From positions 1 through 22,033 of IMG/VR virus record IMGVR_UViG_3300007346_000292: DNA of 22,033 bases. The stretch is one strand, 5' to 3'. Under the pieces are notes generated by a model. The model was not told the DNA's origin, did no database searches, and saw only the letters and a program-made list of their open reading frames with translations. Positions within the stretch are counted from its first letter, which is position 1. Each line of letters begins with the position of its first letter. Source of the stretch: a virus. The position numbers and the translations under genes were made by a program. Positions 6,468 to 22,033 of the stretch are shown in pieces.

Positions 6468-6814
6468 AAAACTACAGAGAAAAATCTGTAATTATTAGTT
6501 GCACAACAGATGCACAAAGGGAAACTCTTTATGAGTGCCCTGCAAACTGTCGTGCAAAAGTTCCTCTTGTTTTTATTACTAATGCTAATGGAACTGTGTC
6601 TATCACTTTTGAATGGTATAGAGCAGCAGATACAACTCACTATTATATTATCAGTGGAAAAAATCTAAGCGCTGGAGAGTTTATTCAGCTTTCTGATGGG
6701 TATATTGTGCTTGAGCCGGGGGACAAACTTGAAGTAACTCCTACAGGTTCTACACCAGTTGTAGACGCTCTTTGCACTGTTGAAGAAATATTTATTCCTG
6801 TAGGTGGTGCATAA
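6464..6814 (+). CDS. Conserved beta-rich phage protein, 116 aa
   Basis: 116 residues from a GTG start at 6464 that overlaps the previous stop (GTGA); AGG at 6455-6457 is the likely ribosome binding site. Unlike its neighbours it is neutral and beta-rich, with alternating hydrophobic strands (SVIISCTTDAQRETLYECPA, SITFEWYRAADTTHYYIIS, EFIQLSDGYIVLEPGDKLEV). The order of strands and the motif L..GYIVLEPGD are typical of a small conserved phage family found in structural gene clusters, probably a beta sandwich. I expect a virion surface or head-tail accessory role; exact function unknown. Stop overlaps the next ATG (TAATG). Confidence 0.65.
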   Translation: MKNYREKSVIISCTTDAQRETLYECPANCRAKVPLVFITNANGTVSITFEWYRAADTTHYYIISGKNLSAGEFIQLSDGYIVLEPGDKLEVTPTGSTPVVDALCTVEEIFIPVGGA

Positions 6815-7212
6815 TGGGACGCACTAATGAAGCCCTGTGGAAACGTACTGTGTCTCGCATTAAAGCTGGCTCTAAGGGTGGTAAAGCAGGACAATGGTCA
6901 GCTAGAAAAGCTCAGTTAGCTACAAAAGCATATAAAGATGCTGGAGGAAGTTACTCTGGTACAAAGACTAAAGCTCAAAAATCTTTAAGCAAGTGGACAA
7001 AAGAAGACTGGGGAACTAAATCCGGAAAACCTAGTACTCAGGGTAAAGATGCTACTGGTGAACGTTATCTTCCCAAAAAAGCTAGAGAATCTTTGTCTAA
7101 AAAAGAGTATGCTAAAACCTCCGCAAAGAAACGTAAAGACACTAGGGCAGGCAAACAATTCTCTAAACAACCAAAAACAATTGCAAAGAAAACCGCAAGG
7201 TATAGGAAGTAA
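6814..7212 (+). CDS. DUF5872-like basic protein, 132 aa
   Basis: 132 residues, extremely lysine-rich. The N-terminal third has KAGSKGGKAGQWSARKAQLA and then YKDAGGSY; the central block (residues 57-95) has SLSKWTKEDWGTKSGKPS, TQGKDATGERYLPKKA and RESLS; the end is basic with KQFSKQPKTIAKKTARYRK. The block WGTKSGKPS..TGERYLPKKAR is the signature I associate with DUF5872, a family found in marine phages and large algal viruses. No function is established; composition suits DNA or capsid-interior binding. It lies directly before the small terminase gene, 1 nt from its start, and starts at a TAATG overlap. Confidence 0.78.
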   Translation: MGRTNEALWKRTVSRIKAGSKGGKAGQWSARKAQLATKAYKDAGGSYSGTKTKAQKSLSKWTKEDWGTKSGKPSTQGKDATGERYLPKKARESLSKKEYAKTSAKKRKDTRAGKQFSKQPKTIAKKTARYRK

Positions 7213-7213
7213 A

Positions 7214-7573
7214 ATGGCTAAAACAGAAAAACAACAAGCATTTCTTGATGCACTCTTTAACGAGGCAAGAGGTGACCTGTATCAAGCCAAAAAAATTGCA
7301 GGTTATTCTCCAACAACACCCATGAGTGTTATTATTGGGCCTCTTGCAGAAGAAGTTACAGAACTTACACGTAAGCACATTGCTACTTATGGCGCAAAAG
7401 CAATGTTTTCTATTGCAGATGTTATGGAACGTCCTACTGATCTTGGTAATAAGGAAAAACTTGCTGCAGCTAAAGACTTTCTTGACCGTTCTGGACTAAA
7501 AGGCGCAGATAGAGTTGAGGTTAAGTCAGAGTCCCCTTTATTTATTTTGCCTTCTAAGGAAGAAAATGAGTAA
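7214..7573 (+). CDS. terS: Terminase small subunit (putative)
   Basis: 119 residues from ATG 7214, with AGGA about 6 nt upstream; longer readings of this frame run back through the previous gene and are rejected. The N-terminal half has a helix-turn-helix-like arrangement (KQQAFLDALFNEARGDLYQA then KKIAGYSPTT), the usual DNA-recognition part of small terminases. The second half has DLGNKEKLAAAKDFLDRSGL, the helical stretch seen in this family before a short beta-like tail (DRVEVKSES). The subunit would select viral DNA and hand it to TerL. Placement two genes before TerL supports this. The stop overlaps the next gene. Confidence 0.75.
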   Translation: MAKTEKQQAFLDALFNEARGDLYQAKKIAGYSPTTPMSVIIGPLAEEVTELTRKHIATYGAKAMFSIADVMERPTDLGNKEKLAAAKDFLDRSGLKGADRVEVKSESPLFILPSKEENE

Positions 7574-7982
7574 AAAAAGCTTGAAGATACCTGCACCTCT
7601 GTGTTATAATGAGGAATATGAATACTTTCCTCTTGTTCGTGTAAGTAGAATTATTCCTTTTGGTTATGAAGAAGACCCTAACGATCCTGATATTCTTCTG
7701 CCTATTGTAGAAGACTTAGAACTTCTTGAACAAGCAAAAGTGCATTTGAAGCAATATAGCCTTAGAGACGTTGCTGCTTGGTTGTCTGAAAATGCCTCAA
7801 GAAGTATCTCACACATGGGTTTAAAAAATAGGATTGAAATTGAGCAACGAAAACATAGAGAAGGCCTCAATCAACGCCAGCTCATTGAGCAGCTTAAGAA
7901 AGCGATCCACAAGGCCGAAAAAATCGAAAAAAGCTATCTCGGAAAAAGAAGAAAAACTTCCCGCGAAAGCCAAGACGCCTGA
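7566..7982 (+). CDS. HTH protein preceding TerL, 138 aa
   Basis: 138 residues from ATG 7566, with GGAAG just upstream; it overlaps the small terminase stop by 8 nt. Residues 20-45 contain VRVSRIIPFGYEED, a short conserved-looking segment. Residues 64-90 (YSLRDVAAWLSENASRSISH then MGLKNRI) form a clear helix-turn-helix of the resolvase/sigma-like kind. The C-terminus is a charged coiled coil (residues 90-125). I read it as a DNA-binding packaging or regulatory partner, conserved just upstream of TerL in related marine phages. Its last 143 nt are shared with the start of TerL in the +1 frame. Confidence 0.7.
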   Translation: MSKKSLKIPAPLCYNEEYEYFPLVRVSRIIPFGYEEDPNDPDILLPIVEDLELLEQAKVHLKQYSLRDVAAWLSENASRSISHMGLKNRIEIEQRKHREGLNQRQLIEQLKKAIHKAEKIEKSYLGKRRKTSRESQDA

Positions 7983-9417
7983 TCTAATCGTAGAAGAAGC
8001 ACAAGAAAAACTTCAAGAAGTTGCTAAAGAACGAAAGATCATCTTTCAACCTAACCCCGGACCACAAACTAATTTTCTAGCCGCAAGTGAGCAAGAAGTT
8101 CTTTATGGTGGCTCTGCTGGAGGAGGTAAATCTTATGCAATGGTTGCAGACCCTATTCGTTACGTTAACTCTGCAGGGTCTCGTAAGTTGTTGTTGCGTA
8201 GGACAACAGAAGAACTAAGGGAGCTTATTGGGGTATCTAAGATGTTATACCCAGAAGCAGTACCCGGAGCTAAGTTTCTAGAACGAGACAAAACTTGGGT
8301 ATTTCCTTCTGGCGCTACTCTCTGGATGTCTTATCTTGATAGAGATGATGACGTAACTCGATACCAAGGTCAGGCGTATAACTGGATTGGTTTTGACGAA
8401 CTTACTCAGTGGGCAAGTCCTTACGCTTGGAACTACATGCGTTCTCGTCTACGTAGTGCAGATAGAAATTTGCCTTTGTACATGAGGGCAACAACTAACC
8501 CCGGAGGTTCAGGGCATCAGTGGGTTAAGAAAATGTTTATTGACCCTTCTCCTGCAGGTAAAGCTTTCTGGGCAACTGACGAGTTTGGAGAAACAATTAC
8601 GTGGCCTAAAGGGCATTCACGAGAAGGTGAACCTCTTTTTAAGCGTAGATTTATTCCCGCTACTTTGTTTGATAACCCTTATCTTGCTGATGATGGAATG
8701 TATGAAGCTAACCTTCTTTCATTGCCTGAACATCAACGCAGACAACTTCTTGAGGGTGATTGGGATATTAACGAAGGTGCAGCATTCCCAGAGTTTAACC
8801 GTAAAGTTCATGTAATTGAACCTTTTGATATTCCCTCAAGCTGGCCTCGTTTTAGAGCATGTGATTACGGATATGGTTCTTACTCTGGTGTTCTTTGGTT
8901 TGCTGTAGCCCCCGATGAGCAGCTTATTGTTTACAGGGAACTATATGTTTCTAAAGTTCTTGCTACAGACCTAGCAGACATGGTGCTTGAAGCAGAGTCA
9001 GAAGAAAAAGTACGATATGGTGTTCTTGACTCTTCTCTTTGGCACAGACGTGGTGATACAGGGCCTAGCCTAGCAGAAACAATGATTCGTAAAGGTTGTC
9101 GTTGGAGGCCCTCTGATCGTTCTGCTGGTTCACGTGTAGCAGGTAAGAATGAAATACATAGAAGGCTTCAGCTAGATGACTTTACTGAAGAACCTCGTAT
9201 GGTTATTTTTAATACTTGCAAGGCTTTGATTGAACAACTTCCTTCACTTCCTCTTGATAAAAATAATCCAGAGGATGTAGACACTAAATCTGAAGATCAC
9301 CTCTACGATGCCCTTCGCTACGGTCTAATGTCCAGACCTAAAACAGGGCTTTTTGATTACGATAACTGGGCGGGTAAAAAACAATACCAACCCGCAGATA
9401 ACAAATTTGGATACTGA
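7840..9417 (+). CDS. terL: Terminase large subunit
   Basis: About 525 residues. The ATPase domain has Walker A GGSAGGGKS (about residues 90-98), Walker B NWIGFDEL with the DE pair (about 186-187) and the coupling motif TTNPGG (about 218-223). The C-terminal RNase H-like nuclease has acidic residues in RACDYGYG (about D342), YGVLDSSLW (about D397) and EDHLYDALRYG (about D486/D490). It cuts and translocates DNA into the procapsid at the portal. The start is unusual: the frame opens at 7825 and offers no ATG before the ATPase core. TTG 7840 has AGGA at 7830-7833 with a 6-nt gap, better placed than TTG 7834. The lysine-rich first ~60 residues lie inside the HTH gene. GC content is low. Confidence 0.93.
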   Translation: MSNENIEKASINASSLSSLRKRSTRPKKSKKAISEKEEKLPAKAKTPDLIVEEAQEKLQEVAKERKIIFQPNPGPQTNFLAASEQEVLYGGSAGGGKSYAMVADPIRYVNSAGSRKLLLRRTTEELRELIGVSKMLYPEAVPGAKFLERDKTWVFPSGATLWMSYLDRDDDVTRYQGQAYNWIGFDELTQWASPYAWNYMRSRLRSADRNLPLYMRATTNPGGSGHQWVKKMFIDPSPAGKAFWATDEFGETITWPKGHSREGEPLFKRRFIPATLFDNPYLADDGMYEANLLSLPEHQRRQLLEGDWDINEGAAFPEFNRKVHVIEPFDIPSSWPRFRACDYGYGSYSGVLWFAVAPDEQLIVYRELYVSKVLATDLADMVLEAESEEKVRYGVLDSSLWHRRGDTGPSLAETMIRKGCRWRPSDRSAGSRVAGKNEIHRRLQLDDFTEEPRMVIFNTCKALIEQLPSLPLDKNNPEDVDTKSEDHLYDALRYGLMSRPKTGLFDYDNWAGKKQYQPADNKFGY

Positions 9418-11522: not shown

Positions 11523-11710
11523 GTTTGAAGCAACTAGTTAATAACTCTGAACTGTGGGTTTCTTTTCTTTCAGAGATAGATGATCGAATTAGAGTAGTTC
11601 AAAAACAAATGTCTACTGCTGAGGAACCAAAAGATTTGTATCGGTGTCAAGGTGAATTGAAACAACTTAATAGCTTGAAAAGACTAAGGGATAAAGTAAA
11701 CAATGGCTAA
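11519..11710 (+). CDS. Small portal-linked protein, 63 aa
   Basis: 63 residues from a GTG at 11519 that overlaps the portal stop (GTGA). It is a single helical hairpin-like protein: LKQLVNNSELWVSFLSEIDD, then RIRVVQKQMSTAEEPKDLYR, then CQGELKQLNSLKRLRDKVN. The pattern L....WxxF..ELDxRI......A....LyR.QG....L..L is common in small genes that directly follow portal genes in marine and enteric phages. I do not know an established function. A role in head assembly or head-tail joining is plausible. Its end overlaps the next ATG by 8 nt. Confidence 0.68.
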   Translation: MSLKQLVNNSELWVSFLSEIDDRIRVVQKQMSTAEEPKDLYRCQGELKQLNSLKRLRDKVNNG

Positions 11711-14700
11711 TCTTGGTATTGAATCCGTACCTTTTTTTAACAGACCTCAAAGTTCTGGACCTAAAGACAGATTTATTGGTATAGATGAAGCAGGTAATTT
11801 TGTTTTTAAAACTGTTCTTGGTCAAGTCTACACCATTAAACCTGCAGCAGATCAACGTACCACAAGAACAAAAATTGAAGAAGACGTAGTACCTGCTGTT
11901 AAAGAGTATATTAAAGACCCAAGCCTTCCTTCTGCAGAGGAAATGAAACAATTTGGTGTTGATACTGTAACTGGTGCATATGAAAGTGTTAGTGATGCTG
12001 TAAGAGGTATGGGTACCTACGGTGATGCGTTTAGTGTTGCTGGAGCTACTGCCGTACCTCGTCTGCCAAAAACAAAAGGAACTTCTACTGACCCACTAAC
12101 TGCAGACGAATTCTTTGAGTTTTATTCTCCTTCAAAAGAGTCTCTTAAAAAAGAGGCAGACTTGATGATGGGACCTGAAAAAAATCCGGATTCTGATTTA
12201 TATGAGCAAACCTCTTTTGTAGCAGATTTTGCTTTTGAAGATGTACCTTCTTACATTAAATTTGACACACTAGAAGATGCAGTTGACAGTTTTAAGTCTG
12301 AATTTAACGACTCTATACAAAAATATGGACCTGAGTCAACTACTGGAAAAACAGCGCAAGCAAAACTAAAAGCACTTGAAGTGCTTGGAGAAGACTTTTT
12401 TATACAGGCATCTAATAATCTTCCGCACTGGGAGTCTAAAGATTATGATAAATTTACAGAAAATTTCTTTAAAAAAGTAGAAGAAAATGGACTCGATAAG
12501 TACGCAAGCTTTCAACTTTTGAATGATTTAGATAACATTAGTCAAGACATCTACGGAATAAAAATAAGCCCGCTACTAGATGAAATGACAGAAAAGCCTC
12601 TACCCTATAAACAAAAAATTGGTAAAAGAGTATTTGGTGGAAAAGAAAGACCCTCAGATAAAAGAGCAGAAGCCTTAGGTTTTAAGGATACCGTATACCA
12701 CACATCAAATGCACCAGAAGAATTTACTGTGTTTGATATGGATAGTGACTTAGGTCCGTTTAGTTTTAGGGCTGCACAAGATTTGTTAGGTGTGCACGTT
12801 GGTACTGCTCGTGCAGCAGCGGAACGTAATCTTGTACCATCAGATAAACAAAAAAACCCTACAGGTTTTACTATGGAACTTAGGGCAAGGACAACTAAAC
12901 CACTGACTCCAGAAGCAGTAGAAAAAGACTTTAATTTTGAAGTACCAAAAGGCATAGGATTATTTGACTCAGACGGCAATTTTACTGAAAAAGGTTTAAA
13001 TTATCTCATTAATAGGCATCACGATAACATGTTTAAAGGTACTGTAACAAGTTTACCTGATAACAGTTCTCATATAGCCGCAAGAGATTTTAGTAGGGAA
13101 CTCTCAAAAAAAGGTTATACGCATATTCCTTATATCAATGATATTGAAGACCCGGGATCAACAAGTTTTGTTATGCTGGTAAATAGGCCTAAAACTGATC
13201 CAGCAGTACTTAGAGATGTTAGAGCTAAATTTGACCCGGATAAAATAACAGACCCAGACCTTAGATTTGCAGAGGGCGGAACAGTGACTAATAGTAAATC
13301 TCGCAGAAATTCACGGACTAGAAATCGCGATAAGCTTAATGCGATAGACCAAATAAAAACTTTTTACAAGGCAGCTACAACTGTACCTGCAAAAGAATTT
13401 TTGCAAGATATTTTTGTCCCTACAATGGGCAGGGTTATTACGGAAGACACGTTTTCAAAAGAAACTCTAGATGTTCTTAGGCAAATGGTTGTCGATCAAG
13501 GATTAAAACCCGGAGATTTTCATAGGTTTACTTACACGGACTATGATAGATATAACACAACTCTTTCTCCTTTATTTACTACATATGGTGGAGAAAAAGT
13601 ACACGAAAATCTTATTGAAAAAGTTGCTAATCTAACTCCAGCAGATCAAGCTAAAATGACTCTTGGGGAAATTTTAGTTGTTGTTGATAAAGATGGGATT
13701 GCTACGATAAAAGATAGGTACAACTTTAATAATTGGGCCGACTATAGCGCTGAACCCTACAGGGATAGTTCTGGTAATCTTCAATATCCTACTTATACAC
13801 CGGAAGAGTTTGAAAAGCTCGGGCTTTCTTTTGCTGATGCAGCAGAAATTACTTTTAAATATGGCCCAAGTGAGTACCAAAAGTTAAGAAACTTTGGTTT
13901 TTTGCTCGGTTCTAGGGATTATAAAGATGATTCAAAAGACGAAGGTAAAAAAGTTGAAATTGATCTAGGCGCGGTAACAGAACCAACAGGTCTTGCTGTT
14001 AAAAAGTCAAAAAGACCACGTGCTCGTGTTAAAGATAGAATTACATTAGACCTTAGTCGTGAAGCACCTACAGAAAATTCTCTATTAACTTATTTGGAAA
14101 AAGCACCAAAAAGAAAACTAGCACCTGAAAAGTCTATTCGTCCTCAAGAACGACCTAGGGATGAAACAGCAGAACTTTTTGGTGAAGTGTCAGAATACCT
14201 AGACGAACTTCCTGAAAGAAAACTAGCACCAGAAACTTCTGTAAGACCTCAAGTAAGACCTAGGGATGAAACTGCAGAACTTTTTGGAGAAGTATCTCAG
14301 TATCTTGACACTTTGCCTGAAAGAGAGCTAGCACCAAAAACTTCGGTAAGACCTCAAGCAAGACAAACAAAAACTGTTGAAGCACCTTCTGCGGAATCTA
14401 ATTCTGTAGACACAGATAGCATGTCTTTTGGTGATGCCTTTAAATACTACACAGATAGTACAGATCAAGACGTATTTGAATGGCGGGGTAAAAAATACAA
14501 AACAGAAAGAAAGTTTTCACAAGGTGGAGCAGTGGAGAAACAAATGAACAGACTATATCAAGAAGGTGGCCTTACGGACGATGGTGCTCGTGTAGAGCCA
14601 GTTACAGGCAATGTAGTACCTCCGGGCAGTATGCAGCAAGAAGTGCGCGACAATGTAGATGCTAAACTCTCAGAGGGTGAATATGTCGTACCTGCTGATG

Positions 14701-16214
14701 TAGTTCGTTATTACGGAGTTCGTTTCTTTGAAGACCTTCGTTCAAAAGCTAAAGAAGGGTTTTCTCGTATGGAAGCTGAAGGTCGTATTGGCGGGGAACC
14801 TGTAAATTCTCAAGGTGTTCCCGTGGAAGATGACGAGCTGACCCCTGAAGAAATGCAAATGCTTGCTGAAGCTCTTGGTCAAGCCCCTACAGGAATGGCT
14901 ATGGGTGGTATGGTTGAACCTGTCTACAATCCGTATGAACAACAACAAGTTCAATACACAAACCCAAATCCTCAAATGCCTGTTGGTATGCGTGAAGGTG
15001 GTTTTGCACTAGCCAATCAACAAACAACCCAACCTCAAAATCAACAAACAACCCAACCTCAAAATCAACAAACTTCCACTTTTAACCCTGCTCAGTGGAC
15101 ACTAGGTAACACCCAAAGTCTGGGGGATGTTCGAGAGTTTAGAGAATATATCAATATCCAAACCGGTGAAACTCGTTTTATCAGTTTTGTTAACGGTCAA
15201 CCTGTTGGAGCTATACCCTCTGGTTTTGTGCCTAAAACGCCAGAAACAGTAGAACAAGCAAACAACAAAAAAGTAGAGACTAAAACAGAAGGCACAGAAA
15301 CACCAGTATGGATGGATGACTCTGAAAGTGAACAACGTAGAGCAGAACAAGAAGGACAAACTAAGTCCGGTCCAAGCAGGTGGGCTAGAGAAAATTACGA
15401 AGATATTGTAAAAGATCCTATTTCTTTCGGTCTTGGTGAGTTAGAAAAGTCTAAAATAGGAACCTTTGCAGAGAAAAATGCAGCAAGACTTGGTGCTACT
15501 TTTGGGGGACTTCCGGGTTTGGTTCTTGGTGGAGGTTCGGGAGTTTACTCGGAACTTCGTCCTTTGGCTGAAGCCAGAGCAGCACTTGGATTAGCAGAAA
15601 TACAAGGGGTAGCTCAGGAGCAAATTGATAGACTAAAAGCTGGGATTGCAGAAGCTGAAAAAGGTTTAAGCAATGCCTCAAGAATTGTTAATAATTTGGG
15701 TCTAGCTTCAGGAAAGAATCTGCTGGATGATTTGGTTGAGCTTAGTAATGCTAGTAAGCCAAGCGTACCAAGTAGTACAGGTAGATCAAGTAGCACAGGT
15801 AGATCAAGTGGCTCAAGTACACAAAATAAAGTTAACATTAGTTACGACCCTAGTTACACTCGTGATGAGAGTGATAGTGAAGAAATAAGAGCAGCCAGTA
15901 GGGCCTCAGAACTTTCTGGAAGTAAAGACGTAACCATCTCTACTGATTCTACAGGAGTAACTCGTGCAACTTCTGGTAGGGCATCTGTAACTGTTGGAAG
16001 TTCGGCACCTAAAACAATTACAGTTAGCCCGCCAACAAGTCCTGATAGGTCTTCTGCAACTAATGCAACTGATTCAAGAGGGAGAACGGCAGGAGACGAA
16101 GGTTTTGGCAGTGAAGGTTGGAATGAAGGCGGTCTAGTTGCAAAACCCTCAAGTTATAAAAGTAAAGTTACCCGTAAAAATGAAAATAAACGTCGTGGTC
16201 TAGGTTCAAAGTAA
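11703..16214 (+). CDS. Giant mosaic virion-associated protein with ART-like domain
   Basis: 1503 residues with AAGGGA ~10 nt before the ATG. Residues 1-310 are unassigned. Residues ~318-522 look like an ADP-ribosyltransferase of the phage polyvalent (ART-PolyVal) type: RAEALGFKDTVYHTSN with His333, LGVHVGTARAAAERN, MELRARTTKPL, and YINDIEDPGSTSF with Glu482, then RAKFDP. Residues ~541-740 hold another folded domain with LVVVDKDGIATIKDRYNFNN. Residues 797-888 are a 35-residue tandem repeat. Residues 988-1020 contain KLSEGEYVVPADVVRYYGV, recurrent in marine phage proteins. Glutamine repeats, an alanine-rich coiled coil (1285-1325) and a serine-rich tail follow. Six GG-hydrophobic motifs separate the parts. 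Between portal and scaffold, it is probably a capsid-internal or ejected protein; this is inference. Confidence 0.7.
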   Translation: MANLGIESVPFFNRPQSSGPKDRFIGIDEAGNFVFKTVLGQVYTIKPAADQRTTRTKIEEDVVPAVKEYIKDPSLPSAEEMKQFGVDTVTGAYESVSDAVRGMGTYGDAFSVAGATAVPRLPKTKGTSTDPLTADEFFEFYSPSKESLKKEADLMMGPEKNPDSDLYEQTSFVADFAFEDVPSYIKFDTLEDAVDSFKSEFNDSIQKYGPESTTGKTAQAKLKALEVLGEDFFIQASNNLPHWESKDYDKFTENFFKKVEENGLDKYASFQLLNDLDNISQDIYGIKISPLLDEMTEKPLPYKQKIGKRVFGGKERPSDKRAEALGFKDTVYHTSNAPEEFTVFDMDSDLGPFSFRAAQDLLGVHVGTARAAAERNLVPSDKQKNPTGFTMELRARTTKPLTPEAVEKDFNFEVPKGIGLFDSDGNFTEKGLNYLINRHHDNMFKGTVTSLPDNSSHIAARDFSRELSKKGYTHIPYINDIEDPGSTSFVMLVNRPKTDPAVLRDVRAKFDPDKITDPDLRFAEGGTVTNSKSRRNSRTRNRDKLNAIDQIKTFYKAATTVPAKEFLQDIFVPTMGRVITEDTFSKETLDVLRQMVVDQGLKPGDFHRFTYTDYDRYNTTLSPLFTTYGGEKVHENLIEKVANLTPADQAKMTLGEILVVVDKDGIATIKDRYNFNNWADYSAEPYRDSSGNLQYPTYTPEEFEKLGLSFADAAEITFKYGPSEYQKLRNFGFLLGSRDYKDDSKDEGKKVEIDLGAVTEPTGLAVKKSKRPRARVKDRITLDLSREAPTENSLLTYLEKAPKRKLAPEKSIRPQERPRDETAELFGEVSEYLDELPERKLAPETSVRPQVRPRDETAELFGEVSQYLDTLPERELAPKTSVRPQARQTKTVEAPSAESNSVDTDSMSFGDAFKYYTDSTDQDVFEWRGKKYKTERKFSQGGAVEKQMNRLYQEGGLTDDGARVEPVTGNVVPPGSMQQEVRDNVDAKLSEGEYVVPADVVRYYGVRFFEDLRSKAKEGFSRMEAEGRIGGEPVNSQGVPVEDDELTPEEMQMLAEALGQAPTGMAMGGMVEPVYNPYEQQQVQYTNPNPQMPVGMREGGFALANQQTTQPQNQQTTQPQNQQTSTFNPAQWTLGNTQSLGDVREFREYINIQTGETRFISFVNGQPVGAIPSGFVPKTPETVEQANNKKVETKTEGTETPVWMDDSESEQRRAEQEGQTKSGPSRWARENYEDIVKDPISFGLGELEKSKIGTFAEKNAARLGATFGGLPGLVLGGGSGVYSELRPLAEARAALGLAEIQGVAQEQIDRLKAGIAEAEKGLSNASRIVNNLGLASGKNLLDDLVELSNASKPSVPSSTGRSSSTGRSSGSSTQNKVNISYDPSYTRDESDSEEIRAASRASELSGSKDVTISTDSTGVTRATSGRASVTVGSSAPKTITVSPPTSPDRSSATNATDSRGRTAGDEGFGSEGWNEGGLVAKPSSYKSKVTRKNENKRRGLGSK
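14091..14366 (+). repeat. 105-bp (35-aa) tandem repeats in giant gene
   Basis: Three units begin at residues 797, 832 and 867, exactly 35 residues (105 bp) apart; the third is partial. Shared core: LAPExSVRPQxRPRDETAEL then FGEVSxYLDxLPER. The units are charged and proline-containing and probably form an extended linker between folded parts. Confidence 0.75.
15015..15073 (+). repeat. 24-bp tandem repeats (glutamine-rich)
   Basis: A 24-bp unit occurs at 15015-15038 and 15039-15062 and partly from 15063, encoding NQQTTQPQ repeats at residues ~1105-1124 of the giant protein. Nearly perfect identity suggests slippage. Confidence 0.7.
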
Positions 16215-16273: not shown

Positions 16274-17143
16274 ATGGCCCAAGATAAAGTATATGTAGAT
16301 TCAAATTACCGGCGCTCTAAAAATCAAGCTCGTATTGAGAAAGAAGAAAAAGAACTAGAAGCTTTGATTAATAAATCCTCTGAAGAAGTGGAGGAAGAAA
16401 TTCAAGAAGAAGAGGCGCAAGAACAGCCAAAAGAAGCTGAGTCTGAAGACAAAGAACTAAACGCAGAAGAAAAAACTTTTAAGAAGCGTTATGGTGATCT
16501 TCGTCGTCATATGGCTGAAAAAGAAAAAGAGTGGGAAAAGCGATTTGCTGCACTAGAAAACGCAAAGAAAACTTCTGAGATTGTTCCGCCTAAATCTGAT
16601 GAAGATATTGAAGCTTGGGCTAGAAAGTATCCTGATGTAGCCAGTATTGTACACACAATTGCTGAAAAGAAAGCTAAAGAACTTTTTTCAAAAACAGAAA
16701 GTCGTCTGAGAGAGTTTGATGAAGTTCAGTATGAAGCACAACGTACTAAAGCAGAAACACAAATTCGCAAAGCACATGAGGATTTTGATGAGCTAAGAGC
16801 TTCTGATGAATTCCATAACTGGGCAGAAGAACAACCTAAATGGGTACAAGACGCACTTTATGAAAATTCAGATGATCCAGCTTCTGTAATTCGTGTTATT
16901 GATCTTTATAAGGTAGACAATGGACTTACACCAAGCGCAAAAAAGGCTAAGTCGAAAGATGCTGCAAAGTCTATTCGTACTTCTTCTACCCCAAAAGTAA
17001 ATACAAATAACAATGGAAAGATTTTTAAAGAGTCTCAAATTGCTAAAATGTCTGATAAAGAATTTGAAGCTAACTGGGATGCCATTCAAGCTGCACAAGC
17101 CTCAGGGAATTTTGTGTATGATATGTCTGGTGGAGCACGTTAA
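16274..17143 (+). CDS. Scaffolding protein
   Basis: 289 residues with GGAG about 8-9 nt before the ATG. It is highly charged: residues 18-75 are glutamate/lysine-rich and almost free of hydrophobics, and residues 65-100 (KRYGDLRRHMAEKEKEWEKR) are a coiled coil. A helical middle (DEDIEAWARKYPDVASIVHT to residue ~190) and a conserved-looking acidic/aromatic stretch (FDELRASDEFHNWAEEQPKW) follow, then a basic low-complexity linker and a C-terminal segment (MSDKEFEANWDAIQAAQASG) that probably contacts coat protein. Composition, length, and its place directly before the coat gene are those of a phage scaffold, which guides procapsid assembly and leaves before or during packaging. Confidence 0.85.
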   Translation: MAQDKVYVDSNYRRSKNQARIEKEEKELEALINKSSEEVEEEIQEEEAQEQPKEAESEDKELNAEEKTFKKRYGDLRRHMAEKEKEWEKRFAALENAKKTSEIVPPKSDEDIEAWARKYPDVASIVHTIAEKKAKELFSKTESRLREFDEVQYEAQRTKAETQIRKAHEDFDELRASDEFHNWAEEQPKWVQDALYENSDDPASVIRVIDLYKVDNGLTPSAKKAKSKDAAKSIRTSSTPKVNTNNNGKIFKESQIAKMSDKEFEANWDAIQAAQASGNFVYDMSGGAR

Positions 17144-17400: not shown

Positions 17401-18474
17401 ATGGCTTTTAATACCGCAAGCGGTTACGGCAACCTTCCTAATGGAAATTTTAGTTCCGTAATCTATTCCAAGAAGGTACAACTTGCCTTCCGTAAATCGA
17501 CCGTTGTTGGTGACATCACTAACTCGGATTATTTTGGTGAAATTGCTGCTCAAGGTGACACAGTTCGTATCATCAAAGAGCCGGAAATTTCCGTAAGCCC
17601 CTACGCACGTGGTACTCAGATTCAAGCACAAGACCTTGATGACGAAGACTTCTCGCTGGTTATCGACAAAGCTAACTATTTTGCTTTCAAAACAGATGAC
17701 ATTGAAGAAGCTCACAGCCACGTTAACTTCATGGACCTTGCAACCAACCGTGCGGCTTACCGCTTGGCTGACCAGCATGACCAAGAAGTTCTGGGCTATC
17801 TGTCTGGTTACAAGCAATCCGCAACTCATGCAAATGCTGACACTGTTAACGACCAAGTTAATGGCACTAAAGCTGTAGACACTGCAGGTTCTGACGAACT
17901 TCTGTCGAGCATGAAGCTTAAGAAGGGTGATTTTGGTAACATCACGACTGCATCTGCTGGTGATCACTCGATCCCTGTTGCTGCACGTCTTCCGGGTGCT
18001 ACTGCTCTTCCGACTGACTATGTTTCTCCGGTGATGCTCATCAACCGTATGGGTCGTCTTCTGGATCAACAGAACGTTGATAAAGCTGGTCGTTGGATTG
18101 TTATTGATCCGGTAATGATGGAAATCCTGCAGGACGAAGACTCGCGCTTCCTGAATGCAGACTTCGGTGATTCGGGTGCTCTCCGTAACGGCCTCGTGCT
18201 GAACAACTGGAACGGCTTCCGTGTTTATGTCTCTAACAACCTGCCTTCGGTTGGTACTGGCGCAGCTACCACTGGTACTGCTAACCAGAACGCTAACTAT
18301 GGTGTGATTGTTGGTGGTCATGATTCCGCTGTTGCTACGGCTGAACAGATCAACAAGACAGAGACGTACCGTGATCCTGACAGCTTCGCAGATATTGTTC
18401 GTGGTATGCACCTCTATGGCCGTAAGATTCTGCGTCCTGAGGCTCTTGTCACTGCAAAATATAACCTCGCTTAA
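17401..18474 (+). CDS. Major capsid (coat) protein
   Basis: 357 residues preceded by an ideal AGGAGG site. The N-terminus has the arm-like NTASGYGNLPNGNFSSVIYS and VQLAFRKSTVVGDITNSDYF. The motif GDTVRIIKEPEISVSPYARG and the stretch LVIDKANYFAFKTDDIEEAH, then MDLATNRAAYRLADQHDQEV, are characteristic of HK97-fold coat proteins of the P22-like/short-tailed phage sort. The C-terminal half has RWIVIDPVMMEILQDEDSRF and a domain ending in YGRKILRPEALVTAKYNLA. It builds the icosahedral shell on the scaffold. GC content and C-ending codons are higher than in the preceding genes, which fits selection for high expression. It has its own promoter and leader. Confidence 0.93.
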   Translation: MAFNTASGYGNLPNGNFSSVIYSKKVQLAFRKSTVVGDITNSDYFGEIAAQGDTVRIIKEPEISVSPYARGTQIQAQDLDDEDFSLVIDKANYFAFKTDDIEEAHSHVNFMDLATNRAAYRLADQHDQEVLGYLSGYKQSATHANADTVNDQVNGTKAVDTAGSDELLSSMKLKKGDFGNITTASAGDHSIPVAARLPGATALPTDYVSPVMLINRMGRLLDQQNVDKAGRWIVIDPVMMEILQDEDSRFLNADFGDSGALRNGLVLNNWNGFRVYVSNNLPSVGTGAATTGTANQNANYGVIVGGHDSAVATAEQINKTETYRDPDSFADIVRGMHLYGRKILRPEALVTAKYNLA

Positions 18475-21577: not shown

Positions 21578-22033
21578 ATGCTTGGCTTCTCCCCATTAGC
21601 TGCCACAACCCTAGCGGATGATGGGGCTGTAGGAGTAACTCTTGTAGCTGACCAAGGTTCTTTCAACCTATCTGGTCAAGATTTAGTATTAAATGTTTCT
21701 CTTTTAAGTCAGTTTGATGCAGGTTCTTTTAGCCTATCTGGTCAAGATTTAGTATTAAATGTTTCTGTTTTAAGTCAGTTTGATGCAGGTTCTTTTAGCC
21801 TATCTGGACAAGATTTAGTATTAACTGCTTCTTTTTTAAGTCAGTTTGATGCAGGTTCTTTTAGCCTGTCTGGACAAGATGTAACTTTAACCTTTGCTAA
21901 AAACTTTATTGCTGATCAAGGTTCATTTAGTTTATCTGGTCAGGACGTTGGACTAACAACTTCAAAAAATATTGTAGCTGATCAAGGTTCATTTAGTTTA
22001 TCTGGTCAGGACGTTGGACTAACAACTTCAAAA
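21578..22033 (+). CDS. Partial repeat-built appendage protein, cut by right edge
   Basis: A frame opens at ATG 21578, 3 nt after the previous stop, and stays open for 152 codons to the right edge. After a short start (MLGFSPLAATTLADDGAVGV) it consists of tandem 22-residue units with the core DxGSFSLSGQDLVLNxSxLS. Units start at Asp codons at 21650, 21716, 21782, 21848, 21914 and 21980, exactly 66 bp apart, and the last is truncated by the edge. The units look like short beta strands joined by turns, as in a fibrous stalk. Similar GSFxLxGQD repeats occur in phage tail-associated proteins. I infer a fibre or adhesin-like appendage; the complete length and C-terminus cannot be seen. Confidence 0.68.
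   Translation, partial: MLGFSPLAATTLADDGAVGVTLVADQGSFNLSGQDLVLNVSLLSQFDAGSFSLSGQDLVLNVSVLSQFDAGSFSLSGQDLVLTASFLSQFDAGSFSLSGQDVTLTFAKNFIADQGSFSLSGQDVGLTTSKNIVADQGSFSLSGQDVGLTTSK
21650..22033 (+). repeat. Exact-period 66-bp tandem repeats
   Basis: Six units start at 21650, 21716, 21782, 21848, 21914 and 21980 with an unvarying 66-bp period. Units 2-4 are alike in nucleotide sequence and units 5-6 are close to identical to each other, suggesting two rounds of local duplication. The array continues past the edge. Confidence 0.85.

What the first reader, a model, noticed from the sequence alone, without database searches (positions are those of the whole stretch)
12657..13269. ADP-ribosyltransferase-like domain inside a virion-module giant protein
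Residues ~318-522 of the 1503-aa protein carry the ordered marks of the ART-PolyVal class: RAEALGFKDTVYHTSN, LGVHVGTA, MELRARTTKPL and YINDIEDPGSTSF, then RAKFDP. Placement between portal and scaffold suggests an enzyme packaged in the capsid and ejected into the host, as T4 Alt is, but in an unrelated protein. The family resemblance is from memory of motifs; the ejection idea is inference.
Basis: partly seen in the sequence, partly recalled or inferred. Interest (0 to 1): 0.8.

Follow-up and report, generated by a model that had tools for sequence, protein, structure and literature searches.

The report
Swappable ADP-ribosyltransferase-like cargo in phage head-gene protein
A marine virus of bacteria carries, inside a large protein encoded among its head genes, an enzyme-like module of the kind that tags other proteins with ADP-ribose; related viruses swap this module as a block, so it is probably cargo injected into the host, but its expected active site is altered and its activity is untested.

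Summary
Residues 297-532 of the 1503-aa ORF (window 11703-16214) contain every quoted motif at the stated place. AlphaFold2 gives a confident model (pLDDT 82.5, pTM 0.83), and its structural neighbours are almost all ADP-ribosyltransferases (ARTs). One lies in the solved pre-ejectosome protein of cyanophage A4. Profile comparison links the region to ART-PolyVal relatives. The sequence is under purifying selection.

The phage is HMO-2011-type. In these phages the gene between portal and scaffold has a constant 104-aa core with a variable N-terminal extension. Other extensions hold lysozyme, CHAP, NlpC/P60, methyltransferase, metallopeptidase, LPD23 and other ART domains. This matches the known 'polyvalent protein' kind. 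One set of contigs shares a 97%-identical ART cassette in diverged flanks: direct evidence of exchange.

Corrections: canonical ART-PolyVal has a His-Tyr-Asp active site. Here strand 2 carries His365, and the strand-5 acid is Thr487 (Ile, Val or Leu in relatives). Invariant Glu482 lies in the loop before strand 5, as the catalytic acids of anti-CRISPR AcrIF11 do. Activity is plausible, not shown. Packaging and ejection are inferred from context. The concept is published; this lineage, its altered site and its cassette exchange are new details.

The parts
11703..16214 (+). Giant multidomain ORF, 1503 aa, between portal and scaffold-position gene
   Evidence: neighbours identified
11703..12056 (+). 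N-terminal domain (residues ~1-118), shared with giant proteins that lack this ART (L104, L107, L116, L129, L136 and others)
12240..12590 (+). Block (residues ~180-296) co-inherited with the ART domain
   Evidence: coverage; similar sequence proteins
12591..13298 (+). ADP-ribosyltransferase-like domain, residues 297-532
   Evidence: AF2 model; fold matches; hhalign
12699..12701 (+). His333, strand 1 (DTVYHTS)
   Evidence: strand map; invariant in close family
12795..12797 (+). His365, strand 2 (LGVHVGT), at the canonical Tyr position; 48 of 48 aligned homologues
13146..13148 (+). Glu482 in NxxE loop between strands 4 and 5; 47 of 49 aligned homologues
13161..13163 (+). Thr487, first residue of strand 5, where canonical relatives have Asp (GRDSW, GSDSL)
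13275..13280 (+). GG of the RFAEGGTV motif closing the ART block
14110..14364 (+). 105-bp (35-aa) tandem repeat, 2.4 copies, in the part of the protein with almost no detected relatives
14523..14528 (+). GG junction (KFSQGGAV) just before the constant core
14538..14849 (+). Constant core (EVRDNVDAKLSEGEYVVPADVVRYYGVRFFEDLR), found in at least 589 viral stretches
15477..15551 (+). Gly-rich hydrophobic segment (residues ~1259-1283) in the C-terminal tail; similar segments recur in relatives
   Evidence: helical with high local pLDDT
9426..11522 (+). SU10-like portal protein
16274..17143 (+). Scaffold-position protein (phrog_13678, function unassigned)
17401..18474 (+). Major capsid protein

Best explanation
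This is a diverged ART-PolyVal-like domain carried as one exchangeable cargo module of a polyvalent internal virion protein of an HMO-2011-type podovirus. The constant core and hydrophobic C-terminal tail would anchor the protein in the head or its ejection apparatus. On infection the protein would pass into the cell with the DNA, and the ART domain would use NAD+ to ADP-ribosylate a host target, probably a defence or gene-expression component. His333 (strand 1), His365 (strand 2) and the loop acid Glu482 would form the active site. Shown here: predicted fold, homology, purifying selection, modular exchange, gene context. Inferred: packaging, ejection, NAD use, target.
For: Confident AF2 model, with structural neighbours almost all ARTs: ParT, MbcT, exotoxin A and diphtheria catalytic domains, tankyrase, AcrIF11. 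The best, Z 7.3, is the part of cyanophage A4 pre-ejectosome protein 9k3a_B that contains a YHGT/GTYFS ART motif. BFVD matches include proteins named ART-PolyVal. hhalign: 98.9% to L056, 96.5% to Rctr197k, against 0.6% for two unrelated controls. L056 matches PF18760 at E 1.2e-5. dN/dS 0.08-0.22. In a second phage group the ART gene lies directly upstream of the portal gene. Other N-terminal extensions in this slot carry LPD23, lysozyme, CHAP, NlpC/P60, methyltransferase, metallopeptidase and ART-PolyVal. Cassette exchange L017 versus L018/L019. Published precedent for head-packaged polyvalent ARTs (PMC5512222, PMC9503650) and for loop acids in AcrIF11 (PMC12421852).
Against: The strand-5 acid is absent (Thr487; Ile, Val or Leu in relatives). 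The window sequence alone does not reach PF18760, and no direct sequence match to the RPP1 prototype or AcrIF11 is found. VIA-align Z values of 5-7 are modest. No proteomics, so packaging is context only. In the second family the strand-1 His aligns one residue off.
Confidence: 0.55

Rival explanations
1. The domain keeps the ART fold but has lost catalysis. It binds NAD, ADP-ribose or a protein partner, or serves as a structural spacer in the internal virion protein.
For: Canonical strand-5 acid lost throughout this lineage and its sister family; strand-2 Tyr replaced by His (but His is also there in the canonical-acid relatives L056 and Rctr197k).
Against: Glu482, Asn479, Tyr477, His365 and Gly-Thr 367-368 stay near-invariant over homologues as low as 27% identical, a pattern expected of a used active site; AcrIF11 works with acids in a comparable loop (PMC12421852; the likeness of its GYTSVEMEDEHGTTW to GYTHIPYINDIEDPGSTSF is by eye).
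Confidence: 0.3
2. The protein is a morphogenesis or tape-measure-like protein that acts during assembly; the ART domain modifies phage or host proteins late in infection, inside the producing cell, and is not injected.
For: Core region has a PHROG tape-measure match at 2.7e-7; gene lies in the late structural module.
Against: Gene order is that of HMO-2011-type podoviruses; many relatives lack any N-terminal extension (19 of 55 in the core-selected set), so the enzyme part is not needed for assembly; the solved cyanophage A4 pre-ejectosome protein bears an ART-like region.
Confidence: 0.2
3. The ART domain counters a specific host defence at entry, as AcrIF11 counters type I-F CRISPR. This is a sub-case of the best explanation, not exclusive of it.
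For: AcrIF11 (6kyf) is the top Foldseek hit, though weak (E 0.16), and among the VIA matches (Z 5.3); cassette exchange between phages with 71-76% identical flanking DNA fits conflict genes.
Against: No sequence similarity to AcrIF11; no target evidence; exchange also fits host-takeover roles.
Confidence: 0.25

Closest known systems
ART-PolyVal (Pfam PF18760), polyvalent-protein ARTs of Iyer et al. 2017 (PMC5512222)
   Same: ART fold; strand-1 YH; G-x-H/Y-x strand-2 motif; YxNxxE loop; C-terminal RxxAKFDP tail shared with marine relatives; large multidomain protein in the portal-terminase module
   Different: Strand-5 Asp replaced by Thr (Ile, Val or Leu in relatives), strand-2 His instead of Tyr; window sequence below the Pfam threshold
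Cyanophage A4 pre-ejectosome protein (9k3a_B, ORF27)
   Same: Podovirus pre-ejectosome protein with an ART-like region; best structural neighbour (Z 7.3)
   Different: No detectable sequence similarity in the PDB sequence searches; different gene position, downstream of the capsid gene; His and Tyr motifs canonical there
AcrIF11 (6kyf, 8dwq)
   Same: Small phage ART fold; catalytic acids in a loop preceded by a similar GYT strand
   Different: Free-standing small protein; no sequence similarity at profile level
Phage T4 Alt
   Same: Head-packaged, injected ART (functional analogy only)
   Different: R-S-E clade, unrelated protein, not in a polyvalent polypeptide (PMC5512222)

Membership tests
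ADP-ribosyltransferase superfamily | ART fold with split NAD-binding beta core | tested here: met
   AF2 pLDDT 82.5, pTM 0.83; almost all of the top 40 VIA-align rows are ARTs, Z 3.6-7.3. Predicted fold, not solved.
ART-PolyVal (PF18760) | Score over the Pfam gathering cut-off | tested here: not met
   No hit for the window sequence; one relative at E 0.03; bridge L056 26.6 bits against cut-off 31.2
ART-PolyVal (PF18760) | Homology to recognised relatives by profile | tested here: met
   98.9% to L056, 96.5% to Rctr197k; controls 0.6%; but no match to the RPP1 prototype domain
ART-PolyVal / Tox-ART-HYD2 | His in strand 1 | tested here: met
   His333, invariant in close family; strand map
ART-PolyVal / Tox-ART-HYD2 | Tyr in strand 2 | tested here: not met
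   His365 in 48 of 48 aligned; Rctr197k also has His here
ART-PolyVal / Tox-ART-HYD2 | Asp in strand 5 | tested here: not met
   Thr487 by alignment to GRDS/GSDS
Polyvalent proteins (phage type) | Large protein with varied unrelated domains encoded beside portal/terminase | tested here: met
   (met by the gene family; in the window protein itself only the ART domain was recognised)
Polyvalent proteins (phage type) | Packaged in virion and delivered to host | not testable with these tools
   No proteomics found for HMO-2011-type phages in the papers searched
T4 Alt family | R-S-E active site | tested here: not met
   Strand-1 residue is His333, not Arg

The most novel reading that the evidence does not exclude
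An ART lineage with a relocated active-site acid (His-His-loop Glu) is carried as a mobile cargo cassette of a head protein. Each cargo is joined to the constant core through a conserved x-GG-hydrophobic junction that serves as a processing or exchange site; in L022 the same boundary is a gene boundary. The HMO-2011-type virion would thus be a general delivery device for exchangeable early effectors.
Probability: 0.2. Interest if true: 0.75.

Novelty: new variant of a known kind. Interest (0 to 1): 0.5.

Why it matters
[quoted passage not shown] If it is an injected carrier of exchangeable enzymes, the slot between portal and scaffold becomes a place to read out what these phages do to hosts in the first minutes of infection. 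The altered ART active site would widen the known chemistry of the family, or mark a pseudoenzyme; either is directly testable.

Tried and rejected
Direct Pfam, PHROGs and PDB sequence searches of the window domain gave nothing useful. Foldseek against PDB had no significant hit (best E 0.16), so the fold claim rests on VIA-align and BFVD. An ART/ADP-ribosyl-hydrolase pairing, suggested by ARH genes in some HMO-2011-type genomes (PMC9038755), was tested: no ARH in 19 records, many of them fragments. The genome-contig scan found no relatives. Profile match to the RPP1 prototype ART and to AcrIF11 failed. An alignment of canonical ARTs without L056 (A8) was too poor to use. Structure prediction of the core and tail gave pTM 0.36, so it was not searched. 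His333 is not claimed as invariant over both families: in the second family His falls one column earlier. The first alignment count did not settle this.

Full report
What is there. The window is a 22-kb virus record with terminase, SU10-like portal, a 1503-aa ORF, a scaffold-position protein and a P22-type capsid protein in that order. The giant ORF matches phage HMO-2011 and Roseobacter CRP phages only in residues ~914-1184, and those phages have the same gene order.

Homologues. Three rounds of viral-contig searches gave a close family (mostly HMO-2011-type, 40-60% identical) and a second, more distant family whose complete proteins are about 360-711 aa. In the two contigs of the second family that were checked, the gene lies directly upstream of a phrog_1216 portal, followed by scaffold and capsid genes. 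The only match among 50,697 phage records is one at E 3, and the genome collection gave none.

Fold. AlphaFold2 on 33 sequences gave pLDDT 82.5 and pTM 0.83. VIA-align's rows are ARTs almost without exception down to Z 3.6; unrelated proteins start near Z 3.5. Z of 5-7 alone would be weak, but the consistency of the list is not. The top row is 9k3a_B, which is ORF27 of cyanophage A4, a pre-ejectosome protein; its sequence holds SLYHGT and GTYFSKSSQAA. BFVD hits reach 3.5e-8 and include, at weaker E-values, proteins named ART-PolyVal.

Family. PF18760 does not detect the window sequence. A relative, L056, has both the window lineage's LGVHVGT and AKFDP features and a PF18760 match (1.2e-5). Profile comparison of the close family gives 98.9% with L056 and 96.5% with Rctr197k, and 0.6% with two controls. 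L056 was itself found through the window family, so Rctr197k, found independently as the only phage-record hit of the window domain (E 3), is the cleaner link, although Rctr197k did not itself reach PF18760.

Active site. Iyer et al. give H (strand 1), Y (strand 2), D (strand 5) for this clade (PMC5512222). Here strand 1 has His333, strand 2 His365, and strand 5 starts at Thr487. Alignment to Rctr197k (YTNEVEHKGRDSW) and L056 puts the canonical Asp at Thr487, which is Thr, Ile, Val or Leu in this lineage and Asp in three sequences only. Glu482 matches the conserved Glu of the YxNxxE loop. In AcrIF11 the catalytic acids D115 or D146/E147 also lie in a loop (PMC12421852); the sequence GYTSVEMEDEHGTTW of 6kyf resembles GYTHIPYINDIEDPGSTSF by eye, but no profile match supports it. 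So catalysis is plausible and unproven.

The carrier. A 104-aa core is found in at least 589 stretches. In 55 non-redundant core-selected ORFs, 19 start at the core and 35 have more than 150 aa before it; only one of these has this ART family. Among 41 scanned non-ART entries, the extensions match LPD23 (8 members), methyltransferase (3), ART-PolyVal of other subfamilies (3), metallopeptidase (2), lysozyme (2), and one each of cell-wall hydrolase, NlpC/P60 and CHAP (two proteins are entered twice, so counts are upper bounds). This is the polyvalent toolkit. Before the core, 62 of 63 extensions have a GG motif, and the pattern is about five-fold over shuffles in the whole set (406 against 78). 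Shared ancestry and redundancy contribute to that excess, and the shuffle does not control for them. In L022 the ART part is its own ORF, ending FGGGLSQ, its stop overlapping a possible GTG start of the core gene; a sequencing frameshift is not excluded.

Exchange. L017 and L018/L019 share a 1.67-kb block at 97% DNA identity covering the extension and ART; between L017 and L019 the upstream flanking stretches are 71-76% identical, and the protein C-terminal half falls to about 24%. L002 and L003 share an identical ART block behind different N-termini. The module moves as a cassette, with the conserved core near its right border.

Virion role. Evidence is positional: two phage groups place the gene beside the portal; the C-terminal tail has a recurrent Gly-rich hydrophobic segment; a solved pre-ejectosome protein has an ART-like part. 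No proteomics was found.

Verdict. A real ART-like domain in a polyvalent head-module protein: a new variant of a known kind.

Noticed in passing
window 14523-14528; L002-L160 core ORFs: A x-GG-hydrophobic motif precedes the constant core in 62 of 63 extended proteins and recurs at other domain borders; role unknown (processing site, linker or recombination seam).
   Followed up: partly
L017, L018, L019 giant gene: 97%-identical 1.67-kb cassette in otherwise diverged phages: recent transfer of the ART-bearing block.
   Followed up: yes
L022:4723-6702 and 6666-8588: ART part and core part are two separate ORFs, with the ART stop codon overlapping a possible GTG start of the core gene.
   Followed up: partly
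L025-L059 (for example L038:5347-6642, L032:5332-6576): Second ART-like family in a different phage group, as a free-standing gene directly upstream of the portal in the contigs checked.
   Followed up: partly
L011 residues ~185-200: IHELRH zinc-peptidase-like motif in the N-terminal part, ahead of the ART domain; read by eye, not matched to a family.
   Followed up: no
window 14110-14364: 105-bp tandem repeat (35 aa) in the part of the giant protein with almost no detected relatives.
   Followed up: no
window 21647-22033: 66-bp tandem repeats at up to 95% match inside the last, truncated ORF.
   Followed up: no
L009:3796-9870: 2025-aa protein with this ART but without the usual core; other possible modules by eye.
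   Followed up: no
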